From: Mycobacterium kiyosense
GTDB taxonomy: Bacteria; Actinomycetota; Actinomycetes; Mycobacteriales; Mycobacteriaceae
Direction: 5' to 3'
NCBI GenBank assembly: GCA_021654635.1
Contig: AP025179.1
Location: forward strand, 1,426,001 to 1,490,000
Length of the DNA stretch: 64,000 bases
Under the pieces are notes generated by a model. That model searched no databases. It was given only the letters and a program-made list of their open reading frames with translations, and had not been told where the DNA came from. Shown piece by piece: positions 30,179-43,703 of the stretch. Numbering within the stretch: the stretch's first letter is position 1; each line of letters begins with the position of its first letter. A program made the translations under genes and the position numbers.

Positions 30179-33100
30179 ATGGGGGGTGGAGTGCCGCGGT
30201 ACAGGTTTGAGTGGGCCAACTTCTCACCAGCGTTACTCAAGGTCCTCTGCCGCGACCTCCTCGGGGATCTGCAAAGCAACCCCGCGGATGCGCTCGTCCG
30301 CAACTACGGGGCACGACCCCGGGAGGACTTCGTTCGGGCCGCGTGGCCGATCTTGCGTGAATCTTGGCTCCGCGTGTCCAAAGAGTCCCGCGACTGGGTG
30401 GTGGAAACGCTGAGGCAGATCCGGCACGAACCTGAGCCGCTAACGCGCCGCGACGACCAGATGGACTACCTTCGCAACCTGAGGAACTCAGCGAACTTGC
30501 GACGCATCGTCCTGCAGGAACTCGTTGCGGCCGGAGAAATGGAACGTCCAGCAAGACATGAACCCCGACAGACCGAAAGGCCGTCAAGGACGCGATCAGT
30601 ATCACGGCAGTCCAGCGCCGAAAACAGCACACCACGCCGCGGGAAGATGCCACAGAGCAGCCGAAAGGGATCGCCAGTGACGACCACGGTAGGGGCCACA
30701 CCGACGGAAGGTGACCTCCTGACACCGGGCAAGGTGGTCCGGCTGCGTGAACGGCTTTGGCGTGTCGACTACTGCGACGGCACCACCTTCGGTGTGACAG
30801 CACTCGACGGCCGCGACACCCGGCCTTCCAGGTTTCACACCGCACTCGAAACTGTGGAGGCCGGCGACCTCCCGTTTCCCCAACCCGGCGCGCTGGCCGA
30901 CGACCGCCAGCAACGGTTGCTCCTGGACGCCTACAAGTTCTCCCTGCTTCACGGCACCGCCCCCATCCTCGGCCTGCAGCGCTCGCGAGCTATCCCCACC
31001 GACTACCAACTCGTGCCGCTGCTGATGGCTCTCAACAGCGACCCGGTGCGTCTGCTCATCGCCGATGACGTCGGAACCGGAAAAACCGTGGAGGCGGGAC
31101 TTATCCTGTCCGAACTGCTGGCCCGTGGCCGCGCCCGCCGAGTCTTGATCGCGGTCCCTGCCAACCTGCGTGATCAGTGGCATGACGCGCTGGACCGGAT
31201 GTTCCACATCGACGCCACTATCGTGGCCGGGCATCTGCTGCCGGCCCTGGAACGCCGACTGCTGCCGGGCCAGAGCGTGTGGGCCGCCCACGACATCGTG
31301 ATCGCGAGCATCGACTACCTCAAGACCCGTACCGAAGAGGTCCTGTCCTACGGCTGGGACTGCCTGATCATCGACGAAGCGCACATCGCAGCCAAGCCAC
31401 ACACCCAGGCCGGACGATCGACCCCGGACATGGAGCGCTTCCTCTTCGCGTCCAGTGCCGCGGCCCGATGCCGGCACCTGCTGCTGGTCACCGCCACCCC
31501 CCACAACGGGTACACAGATTCGTTCCATTCGCTGTTCCAGATGCTCGATCCCACCCTGGTCACCGATTTCGCCGGGCTGGATCGCAGACGCGCACGCGAC
31601 CATCACGTCGTGCAACGACGCCGCGCTGACATCGAAGACTGGTATCGACTTCGCGGTGCCAAATCGCCCTTTCCGGCGCGCCGCGCTGATGAGCAACTCG
31701 TCAGCCTCACCCGCAAGCGAGAGATGCAAGCCCTGCTGGCCGCACTCAACGAGTACGCCGGCGACCTGTACACCGGCGGCACCCGCACCGTCGACCGCTG
31801 GCTAGCCGCGCATCTGCAGAAACGGCTGCTGTCCAGCCCGGCGGCGCTGCGCTCAAGCATCGACAAGCGGATCGCGGCCGTGACCCGCGGTACGAGCTTG
31901 GAAACCAACGCCACCGCGCTCGAACGTGCCGCCGAAACCACAACCGATGCGATGTTCGATGAAGACGACGAACAAGACGCTGCGCACGTGACCGCGACCA
32001 GCGGACTGGACGCGGCGACCGAACTGCGCCGCCTGGGCGAGATCCGCGACCTCGCCAAGCAGGTCACCGCAGCCAAAGACCCGAAACTGCAGGCCCTGCT
32101 CACACTGCTGCCCGAACGGATGGCCCAGCATCCCAATGCACCCCGAGTGCTGGTATTCACCAAATACAAGGACACTCTCGACTATCTGGTCGCTCACCTG
32201 GAAAAGGCGGTGGGCAAGCCGAAAGCCGGCCTGCCGGCGGACACCGAGGTTCACGCGATCCACGGCGGGATGAACCTCGCCCAACGCAACGAGGTTTTCA
32301 CGAGGTTCGAAAAAAGCCAGCCCGGCCGTTCTGATCGCCACCGACTGCATCAGTGAAGGCGTGAACCTCCAACGAGCCTGCGCCGAGCTCGTACATTACG
32401 AGCTGCCGTGGAACCCCAACCGGATCGAGCAACGCAACGGACGCATCGATCGGTTCCTGCAGCGCGAACCGTTCGTCGGAATCCGCACACTGGTGCTCGA
32501 CGATCCCTTGGATGCCAGCCTGCTCTATCTGATCGTCCGCAAGGCCGAACAGATGCGCGCCGACTACGGATTCGTGCCGCCGTTTCTGGCCAACACCGAC
32601 ATCCTGTTGCACCTGTCAGACCCACAGGCAGCCTTCCGCGGCCGGGTGACCGCCCGGTCCAGCGCCTCGCAGCTGTCCTTGGCCGACCTGTTCGCCCAGG
32701 ACGCCGAAGAGGATATGAGCAGCCTCGACAGTGAGCTTGCCGAACTGACCGCTCAAAGCGTCGACGAAACCGACACGCTGGAACGGGTGCGCGACGAATC
32801 CTTCTACGGACAGACCGGGATCGCACTGCAAGCCATCGAGGAAGCCCTGTCCACGTCGCGTGATCTTGCCGGCACCCCAGAACAGGTGCGGGAGTTCACG
32901 TTACGCAGCCTGCGCGATCGCCACGCCACCGTCAGCGAGGACGCCGCGATATTCACCGCCACCAGCGCTCCCGCGAACCTCACGGACCTGATCCCATCCG
33001 GTTACCGGTTCACCTTCGACCAAACCATCGGCATCGACGACCCCGACATCGACGTGATCGACCTCGCCCACCCCCTGCTTCGACGCCTCATCGACATGAC

Positions 33101-33539
33101 GCTTGAGGAAGCCCGCATGCCTGAGTGCCGCGGCCGCGTCGCCGCCCGCATCATCGACACCACCACCGGCCGCGCAGTACTCCTGCACGCCCTGATCCGC
33201 TACGTCGCCCACGCCGAACCACCGGTCCTGCTCGAAGAATTAGTTCCAATCGGCTACCAACTGAGCACCGGCGACACCCTGGACCCCGCGCCGTTGCTGG
33301 CCGCCGCAGCTGGCGCAGGCAGCAAGCACCGCGACGACGTCCTCGAAGACACCGCGCACGTCCTCGACGACCCCCAGCTGCGCGACCGATTACACGCAGT
33401 CGCGGCGCAACGCGCAACGACCCTAGCCCAACGGCACAGCAGCCTGGTCGCCACGTGGGCCAACGGACTGACCCGAGTCGAGTCCACCTCGACCGACCTC
33501 GTAGCAATGACCCTGCTCTACCCGCAGGTGAAGCCATGA
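30179..33539 (+). CDS. SNF2-like helicase (DrmD-like), apparent frameshift
   Basis: A 1119-aa SF2 helicase after correction. The first 165 residues are a helical region with a basic, low-complexity linker. The motor has Walker A DDVGTGKT (about residue 295-302), DEAH in LIIDEAHIAAK, VTATPH, and the C-terminal motor IATDCISEGVNL and NPNRIEQRNGRIDR. Frame is lost at six A (32310-32315); deleting one A restores FEKASPAVLIATD. ATG 30179 with GGAGA upstream is preferred over GTG 30155. Stop overlaps the methylase start (ATGA). SNF2 plus adenine methylase is the opening pair of class 1 DISARM anti-phage systems, so a DrmD-like role is inferred. Confidence 0.85.
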
Positions 33540-42767: not shown

Positions 42768-42788
42768 AGTAACGAGGGCCACGGTTGA

Positions 42789-43703
42789 ATGGACGTGACT
42801 GCGCTTCCGAGCCATGGGGTCCTCGACCGCGCAGACGGGCGCGCGTGGTCGGCCGTGCTCGAGCCAATACTGCGGGACACCCATGGCGTCGAAAAGTCAA
42901 AGCTCCGACTCCACTTGATCGACAGCCTTATCTCGCAACTGGTCGACGAGCTGAAGCGGCATCGGCTTCCGGAATTCGTCATCTACACCGCTCCAGACCG
43001 TCGCGACGTCACACGTCTAGCGTTTCTCTCCGCCCTCGTGGCGCATCGCGCTGAACGGTTGGTTCAGGCCGCGGAACTCGCCGCCTCGGCACTGGCTGCC
43101 TTGGTGCAGGGAAGCCTTCAACCAAGCGCAGTTTCGGCCCGGGCGTTGTTCGAGCTGGGGGTGGTGTGTTGGGACACCCACAACAAGATGCTCGATTCGT
43201 GGCGTGCGGTGCACGGGAGCCGAAGTCGCATTCGGGCCGAGTCGAGTTCCGGCGAGGCGACGGTGTATCGCCTGCTTTGGGAAACACGGATGGGATCGAG
43301 GTTCTACGGCCCCGAACACGGGTGGCCGCTCGCCAAGAGTATCTTGACCCGCCTCGACCGCTTGGCTAAAGAAGTACCGGATGCGCGAGAGACTTACGAC
43401 ATGTTGTGTGACACAACGCATCCCAATCTAGAGGCGCAAGCACTCCTATGGCGGACTGACTACATAACAATTGGTAAGGACAGGGCGATCCGGTTCGCCC
43501 CCGGCAGATCCAACTCCCTCGTCAAGCTGTATATTGTCGAGTCAATCCGTCTCAGTCTCATGCTCATTATGCCTTTTACGCGGGATCTCTGGTGGATCGC
43601 AGCCGACATCACCAATGCGTGCGACATAACTGCAAGCAGTAAGACTGAACCACTGGGCCTGCCAACACGAACGGGTCGGTCGAAACGACCCCTGCTCATG
43701 TGA
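42789..43703 (+). CDS. Hypothetical protein, last gene of defence operon
   Basis: A 304-aa, mainly helical protein, start ATG 42789, 21 bases after the helicase stop. A central segment (SARALFELGVVCWDTHNKMLDSWR) and conserved-looking DTTHPNLEAQ suggest a DUF5677-like or HEPN-like helical fold, but this is weak. The C-terminus contains a hydrophobic helix (IRLSLMLIMPFTRDLWWIA). It has no phospholipase D HKD motif, so it is not a DrmC. Position in the operon suggests an accessory or effector role. Confidence 0.5.
   Translation: MDVTALPSHGVLDRADGRAWSAVLEPILRDTHGVEKSKLRLHLIDSLISQLVDELKRHRLPEFVIYTAPDRRDVTRLAFLSALVAHRAERLVQAAELAASALAALVQGSLQPSAVSARALFELGVVCWDTHNKMLDSWRAVHGSRSRIRAESSSGEATVYRLLWETRMGSRFYGPEHGWPLAKSILTRLDRLAKEVPDARETYDMLCDTTHPNLEAQALLWRTDYITIGKDRAIRFAPGRSNSLVKLYIVESIRLSLMLIMPFTRDLWWIAADITNACDITASSKTEPLGLPTRTGRSKRPLLM

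What the first reader, a model, noticed from the sequence alone, without database searches (positions are those of the whole stretch)
30179..43703. DISARM-like defence operon with a fused helicase and no drmC
SNF2 helicase and N6-adenine methylase in tight coupling match the DrmD-DrmMI opening of class 1 DISARM. Instead of drmA, drmB and drmC there is one 1767-aa DUF1998 helicase, which also resembles Druantia DruE, then an orphan gene. This is an intermediate architecture between known systems.
Basis: partly seen in the sequence, partly recalled or inferred. Interest (0 to 1): 0.8.

Follow-up and report, generated by a model that had tools for sequence, protein, structure and literature searches.

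The report
ARMADA-type phage defence operon
This is a three-gene anti-virus operon of the ARMADA kind, which a 2025 preprint described as the link between two older defence systems; it belongs to an uncommon actinobacterial branch whose closest kin outside it appear to be in salt-loving archaea, and two of its genes read as broken in this genome, probably through sequencing errors.

Summary
The genes are real, but the system is not new. Window 30191-42767 encodes a RapA/SNF2 helicase, a PglX-like N6-adenine methylase and a 1767-aa YprA/DUF1998 helicase: the gene set of ARMADA (preprint PMC12458937), described there as the missing link between DISARM and Druantia. DISARM is rejected: drmA/drmB are not split, no drmC was found, and two intact close ArmA homologues score 418-425 bits against a DrmD cut-off of 610. 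ArmC ends in a Vsr-fold nuclease, as ARMADA requires. Trees place it in ARMADA Type I, in an A-B-C-ordered branch with haloarchaeal and Thermus systems; ArmD is absent. Three of three fetched close relatives carry the same three genes. Conserved genes elsewhere in this genome are split too (8 of 41 gene tests, against 2 of 76 with same-genus genomes as targets), so assembly errors are likelier than decay. The orphan does not look like part of the conserved operon. In passing: 10 of 64 ArmC-branch clusters carry a C-terminal LexA-like tail, not mentioned in that preprint's main text.

The parts
30191..32356 (+). ArmA (BrxHII/RapA-like SNF2 helicase), first part, frame +2, with a lineage-specific N-terminal extension of about 160 aa; homology leaves this frame at about 32317, before helicase motifs V-VI
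32310..33539 (+). ArmA, second part, frame +3 (ATD, EGVNLQ, QRNGRIDR motifs); the ORF listed by start codon is 32361-33539
33536..37300 (+). ArmB (PglX/DrmMI-like N6-adenine methylase; DPACGS, NPPW), main part, frame +2; homology leaves this frame at about 37116, at a run of seven G
37116..37463 (+). ArmB C-terminal part, frame +3 (112-aa ORF 37125-37463)
37464..42767 (+). ArmC (YprA/DUF1998 helicase, 1767 aa, one open frame; TGTGSGKS at 113, DEMH at 257, QRQGRAGR at 1082, MZB domain)
42372..42764 (+). C-terminal Vsr-type nuclease domain of ArmC (ADLYY, FLDGGVHD)
42789..43703 (+). Orphan, predicted all-helical protein, 304 aa; rare, not next to ArmC in the relatives fetched; lacks its homologues' C-terminal tail
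25915..29165 (-). Mobile-element module beside the operon: HTH protein (25915-26415), Gp49-like toxin (26387-26893), tyrosine integrase spread over several frames by my reading (26802-28134), HTH_17 excisionase-like (28131-28469), phage replication-initiator-like (28803-29165)

Best explanation
It is an ARMADA system of Type I in the A-B-C gene order: ArmA, ArmB and ArmC, without ArmD. Likely working (inferred, not shown here): ArmB methylates an adenine motif and so marks the host's DNA as self. ArmC, a YprA-family helicase, loads on single-stranded parts or ends of unmarked invading DNA and translocates, and its Vsr-type C-terminal domain cuts. ArmA, a RapA-like dsDNA translocase, checks or remodels the DNA and hands it over. 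The cassette probably came on a phage-satellite-like element. The frame breaks in ArmA and ArmB are more likely assembly errors than decay.
Against: As read, ArmA lacks motifs V-VI and ArmB its C-terminus, so this copy may be dead. No phage assay or methylome was possible; the preprint's protection data are for Type II, whose ArmD was essential in E. coli, so a three-gene Type I working alone is not shown. Support for the A-B-C branch is 92-94 (SH-aLRT) in ArmC and 97 in ArmA, and ArmB does not recover it. Gene order is no clean marker: two cyanobacterial systems with A-B before C fall in the C-A-B branch. The Vsr model is of middling quality (pLDDT 71.9, four sequences) and Foldseek gave no match better than E 0.1. 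The BrxA-like insertion was not tested.
Confidence: 0.8

Rival explanations
1. A DISARM class 1 variant with a fused drmA-drmB and no drmC.
For: PADLOC's best models for the first two genes are DrmD and DrmMI.
Against: ArmC's best models are DruE, not DrmA (356 against 41 bits); two intact ArmA relatives reach 425 and 418 bits against the DrmD cut-off of 610; C-terminal Vsr fold instead of a separate PLD nuclease.
Confidence: 0.03
2. A Druantia-like system whose DruE acts with borrowed helicase and methylase genes.
For: Best PADLOC hits of ArmC are DruE1 and DruE3; its closest solved relative by sequence is a 2108-aa DEAD/DEAH box helicase, 9tu7.
Against: ArmC falls outside the DruE III-A, III-B and II rows in the trees; PADLOC shows no other Dru protein in the cassette; relatives keep ArmA and ArmB.
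Confidence: 0.04
3. The locus is a decaying, inactive copy: ArmA, ArmB, the orphan and the integrase are all broken.
For: Frame changes in ArmA and ArmB, orphan tail missing, integrase over several frames by eye; an IS3/IS21 nest lies downstream.
Against: ArmC is a clean 1767-aa frame; conserved genes elsewhere in the assembly are split too (8 of 41 gene tests against 2 of 76 with relatives as targets); a 97-98% identical intact ArmA exists.
Confidence: 0.2
4. ArmB is switched on and off by slippage in its run of seven G, like pglX of the Streptomyces phage growth limitation system.
For: The ArmB frame change falls at a G7 run; runs of seven or more of any base occur in 0.07% of 10,000 random 51-bp windows; Pgl switching is attributed to a G tract in pglX (PMC4365076, passages).
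Against: Three relatives have no such G run there; ArmA also changes frame, at an A6 run; the assembly has many such breaks.
Confidence: 0.07
5. The 304-aa orphan is a fourth, functional subunit (a HEPN-like RNase standing in for ArmD's RelE-like domain).
Confidence: 0.08

Closest known systems
ARMADA Type I, A-B-C order (Natrinema, Haloquadratum, Natribaculum plasmids; order noted for many archaea and cyanobacteria in PMC12458937)
   Same: Three genes, same order and sizes (951-957, 1342-1433, 1763-1782 aa), no ArmD directly behind; ArmC 32.5-33.3% identical over 98-99% of its length
   Different: Actinobacterial host; the window's ArmA and three close relatives have an extra N-terminal part of about 160 aa
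ARMADA Type I, C-A-B order (Rhodococcus sp. PD04, Nocardioides sp. JS614, Paraburkholderia plasmids)
   Same: Same three protein families
   Different: ArmC gene comes first; separate, well-supported branch in ArmC and ArmA trees
ARMADA Type II (E. coli NCTC 12900 in the preprint; here a Klebsiella plasmid and a Streptomyces plasmid, labelled by me from gene order and a UvrD-type fourth gene; the RelE-like part was not shown)
   Same: ArmA-ArmB-ArmC order
   Different: A fourth gene (ArmD), longer ArmC (2113 and 2267 aa), far branch
DISARM class 1
   Same: SNF2 helicase plus N6-adenine methylase
   Different: drmA and drmB are separate genes and drmC is a PLD nuclease; ArmA relatives fall below the DrmD cut-off
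Druantia (DruE)
   Same: Fused YprA-type helicase, nearest by profile
   Different: No other Dru protein in the cassette; different branch

Membership tests
ARMADA | BrxHII/RapA-like helicase, PglX-like methylase and YprA-like helicase in one cassette | tested here: met
   same set in 3 of 3 close relatives with intact frames; in the window two of the genes are split over frames
ARMADA | YprA protein falls in the ARMADA branch, apart from Druantia and DISARM | tested here: met
   against Druantia rows; rows were labelled by gene neighbourhood, not by the preprint's accessions, and no DrmA/DrmB row was in the trees (for DISARM only profile scores)
ARMADA | C-terminal Vsr-type PD-(D/E)xK nuclease | tested here: met
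   (fold, model of middling confidence); catalysis not testable
ARMADA | BrxA-like helical domain after RecA1 | not tested
ARMADA | several zinc-binding CxxC modules | tested here: met
   9 CxxC motifs in ArmC; their place in the fold was not tested
ARMADA Type II | ArmD (GajB-like UvrD helicase with RelE-like N-terminus) follows ArmC | tested here: not met
   next gene is the orphan, without a UvrD match; IS genes follow
ARMADA Type I | ArmC groups with Type I rather than Type II | tested here: met
   23-row clade at SH-aLRT 100 excluding both Type II rows
ARMADA | phage protection | not testable with these tools
   shown for E. coli Type II in PMC12458937
DISARM class 1 | drmA and drmB as separate genes | tested here: not met
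   one 1767-aa frame
DISARM class 1 | drmC PLD nuclease | tested here: not met
   no PLD match in the neighbouring ORFs scanned; not every ORF of the window was scanned
DISARM class 1 | DrmD by curated cut-off (NF038317, 610 bits) | tested here: not met
   424.7 bits (P0138) and 418.2 bits (Herbidospora), both intact close homologues; the window's own pieces 280 and 114 bits
Druantia | DruH (III) or DruABCD partners beside DruE | tested here: not met
   PADLOC matches of the six pieces of the cassette show DruE only for ArmC and no other Dru protein in the rows shown

The most novel reading that the evidence does not exclude
The actinobacterial and haloarchaeal A-B-C systems form a third deep ARMADA type. 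Part of the window's own ArmC branch has joined ArmC to a C-terminal LexA/UmuD-like self-cleaving domain, so that SOS or RecA-ssDNA sensing could release or destroy the helicase-nuclease. That would tie a restriction-like defence directly to DNA-damage signalling.
Probability: 0.25. Interest if true: 0.6.

Novelty: new member of a known kind. Interest (0 to 1): 0.3.

Why it matters
It shows that a sequence-only reader can reach the ARMADA idea from raw DNA, and it adds an uncommon actinobacterial branch whose nearest kin outside it are haloarchaeal in two of three gene trees and which lacks ArmD. Such three-gene systems are small ARMADA sets and good material for asking which parts sense, mark and cut. 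It also warns that frame breaks in this genome should not be read as gene loss.

Tried and rejected
DISARM and Druantia filing: rejected on gene set, cut-offs and trees. Wider searches: with the ArmC alignment 5 of 396 phylum genomes passed E 1e-100, but four of them at 340-353 bits against 3634 for the window's own, so I count 1 of 396 for this branch; the orphan was found in 1 of 394 class genomes, the window's own. IMG/VR scans gave no relative of the orphan or of ArmC. Foldseek gave no significant match for the orphan (best E 0.98) nor for the Vsr model (best E 0.10). No copy of 15 nt or more of the tRNA-Met gene lies elsewhere in the window and the longest direct repeat between the two flanks is 15 nt, no more than in shuffles. 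A frame-jump HMM on 400 kb found 16 same-strand jumps but missed two of the three breaks known at the locus, so I replaced it by an orthologue test. A first version of that test counted loose splits, and its controls used G000's own genes, some of them truncated, and showed 9 of 25 splits; one search uses tighter rules and relative-against-relative controls. In one search one of the eight splits comes from an ORF on the opposite strand at a break already counted, and one G000 gene is tested with several relatives, so the tests are not independent. The place of Type II and of the long Pseudanabaena and DruE II rows rests on long branches and is not claimed. I first took the LexA-like domain to be N-terminal; it is C-terminal. 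PMC12839542 (BREX-related systems) holds none of the terms DISARM, DUF1998, YprA, Vsr or Druantia.
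Full report
What is there. Window 30191-42767 carries three genes. The first is a RapA/SNF2 helicase (PADLOC DrmD 263 bits, BrxHII 176 bits for the first part). The second is an Eco57I-type N6-adenine methylase (DrmMI 240 bits; Pfam Eco57I). The third is a 1767-aa helicase with DEAD, Helicase_C and MZB (DUF1998) domains whose best PADLOC models are DruE1 (356 bits) and DruE3 (337 bits) against 41 bits for DrmA. Junctions are tight: the helicase stop overlaps the methylase start by 4 nt, and ArmC starts directly after the methylase.

The frames are not whole. tblastn with the intact proteins of Herbidospora mongoliensis (L001), a Propionibacteriaceae MAG (L002) and Geodermatophilus ruber (L003) shows ArmA changing frame near 32310-32325 and ArmB near 37116, with ArmC whole (71, 68 and 62% identity). 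The ArmA change lies at a run of six A and the ArmB change at a run of seven G. The orphan's 17 listed homologues (41-97% identity) carry a C-terminal CxC motif, in most followed by C..H, that the window's frame lacks. The integrase upstream seems to change frame at least twice; this is my reading of the three frames, not a homology test. ArmA as read would lack motifs V and VI; ArmB keeps its DPACGS and NPPW motifs.

Error or decay? I took two 20-kb stretches of the same chromosome and compared them with orthologues of three same-genus genomes. With this genome as target, 8 of 41 gene tests (55.4 kb of aligned coding) showed a tight frame split, at five distinct places, two of them seen with two or more relatives and three with one. 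With the relatives as targets, 2 of 76 gene tests (106 kb) did. The tests overlap, since one gene is tested with several relatives. So frame breaks in conserved genes are commoner in this assembly than in its relatives. A 97-98% identical intact ArmA of 1115 aa exists (P0138). I take sequencing error as the likelier cause but cannot prove it. A Pgl-like phase-variable G tract (PMC4365076, passages read) is not excluded; three relatives have no such G run at that place.

What it is. The preprint PMC12458937 (abstract, introduction, results, conclusions and figure legends read, supplements not) defines ARMADA by a BrxHII/RapA-like helicase (ArmA), a PglX-like methylase (ArmB) and a YprA-like helicase (ArmC) with a C-terminal Vsr nuclease. 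Type II adds ArmD, a GajB-like helicase with a RelE-like N-terminus. In the searches the only listed papers that use ARMADA in this sense were this preprint and PMC13192584 on Druantia III.

Which branch. I collected neighbours by gene order. Haloarchaeal plasmids have A-B-C (L066, L067, L073). Meiothermus has A-B-C followed by a UvrD gene, and Thermus the same with small genes between. Rhodococcus, Nocardioides, Paraburkholderia, Sphingobium, Deinococcus and others have C-A-B, and seven same-family genomes have ArmC followed by ArmA, six of them with ArmB seen in the stretch. A Klebsiella plasmid has Druantia III directly followed by A-B-C and a UvrD-type gene; a Streptomyces plasmid has what I read as the same four. 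In a mixture-model tree of 36 ArmC/DruE proteins, 23 rows form one clade (SH-aLRT 100) that excludes both Type II rows and all DruE rows. It splits into C-A-B plus two cyanobacterial rows (100) and Thermus, haloarchaeal and the window's branch (92; haloarchaea with the window's branch 91). A larger LG tree of 64 rows agrees (94, 95). The ArmA tree agrees (97, 98); the ArmB tree keeps the window's branch and the haloarchaeal rows apart from Thermus plus C-A-B without joining them. So this is Type I in the preprint's sense, in an A-B-C branch. The cyanobacterial rows have A-B before C yet sit with C-A-B, so order alone is no marker.

How common. The protein search lists 64 clusters of this ArmC branch, the window's own included, at 35-100% identity; the score then falls from 967 to 504 bits (120 of 203 hits shown). 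By score it was found in 1 of 396 genomes of the phylum, the window's own, and the scan of one genome per species by six exact peptide patterns gave 3 loci.

Lineage mark. ArmA of the window, P0138, P0140 (named Mycobacterium paragordonae) and P0141 share an N-terminal extension of about 160 aa, in which P0140 has no Pfam match; most other close relatives listed are about 940-960 aa long. This and P0022 ('Mycobacteriaceae bacterium') suggest the host family; the host is not otherwise identified.

The orphan. It has 17 homologues and no Pfam, PHROG, NCBIfam or PADLOC match above cut-off. The model is all-helical but for two short strands (pLDDT 84.7) with only weak likeness to 2q00 and Csm6. 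tblastn found no copy in the loci then held, and none of 17 clusters shares a contig length with ArmA or ArmC. I treat it as a neighbour, not a subunit.

Surroundings. The operon sits beside a phage-satellite-like set on the minus strand: HTH protein, Gp49-like toxin, tyrosine integrase, HTH_17 protein and a phage-type replication initiator. This fits the preprint's account of ARMADA on satellite-like elements. No attachment repeats were found.

Mechanism. Shown: gene set, motifs, Vsr-type fold (predicted), branch. Taken from the family: methylation as self-mark and helicase loading on single-stranded DNA (DISARM DrmAB, PMC9142583 passages; DruE, PMC13192584 passages), all four genes needed in E. 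coli Type II. Inferred: that three genes suffice here.

The LexA-like tail. 10 of the 64 ArmC-branch clusters are longer than 1800 aa; all 10 have an AAG site and 9 a GxSM motif near the C-terminus. Of four tailed proteins scanned, three pass the Peptidase_S24 cut-off. The preprint's main text has no LexA, S24 or peptidase. The window's ArmC has no such tail.

Noticed in passing
Proteins P0064, P0067-P0070, P0073, P0075, P0076, P0078, P0079 (relatives of ArmC): 10 of 64 ArmC-branch clusters are 1867-1952 aa long with a C-terminal tail; 9 of 10 carry a GxSM motif and all 10 an AAG site like LexA/UmuD (motifs recalled), and Pfam Peptidase_S24 passes its cut-off in 3 of the 4 tailed proteins scanned. 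The preprint's main text has no LexA, S24 or peptidase.
   Followed up: partly
Proteins P0084, P0097, P0104, P0108: Proteins of 2057-2093 aa, related to ArmC at 27-30% identity, with a protein kinase domain on the same chain (precomputed PF00069/PF07714); P0084 falls in the C-A-B Type I branch.
   Followed up: no
window 53311-58830 +: 1839-aa protein with AAA_11/AAA_12 helicase domains and an MTES_1575 nuclease domain; best PADLOC models PDC-S37 and Hhe, a second candidate defence gene.
   Followed up: partly
window 44028-47746 +: An IS3-type transposase pair (44028-44375 and 47129-47746) seems interrupted by an IS21-type element (IstB 45627-46856).
   Followed up: no
window 47810-52056 +: Two tyrosine recombinases in tandem (365 and 581 aa), followed by a 307-aa ORF (51133-52056) without Pfam match.
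   Followed up: no
L039 and L041 (same chromosome as the window): Five frame breaks in genes with same-genus orthologues within 40 kb, against two in 106 kb of aligned coding in controls: the single-contig assembly probably holds many indel errors.
   Followed up: yes
L072 (Nocardioides sp. JS614 plasmid) 1646-27943: DISARM drmA-drmB, a C-A-B ARMADA and an AAA ATPase plus McrC pair lie side by side.
   Followed up: no
L087 (Klebsiella plasmid): Druantia III (DruH-like and DruE) is followed directly by an ARMADA A-B-C and UvrD-type gene on a plasmid, like the array of the preprint.
   Followed up: no
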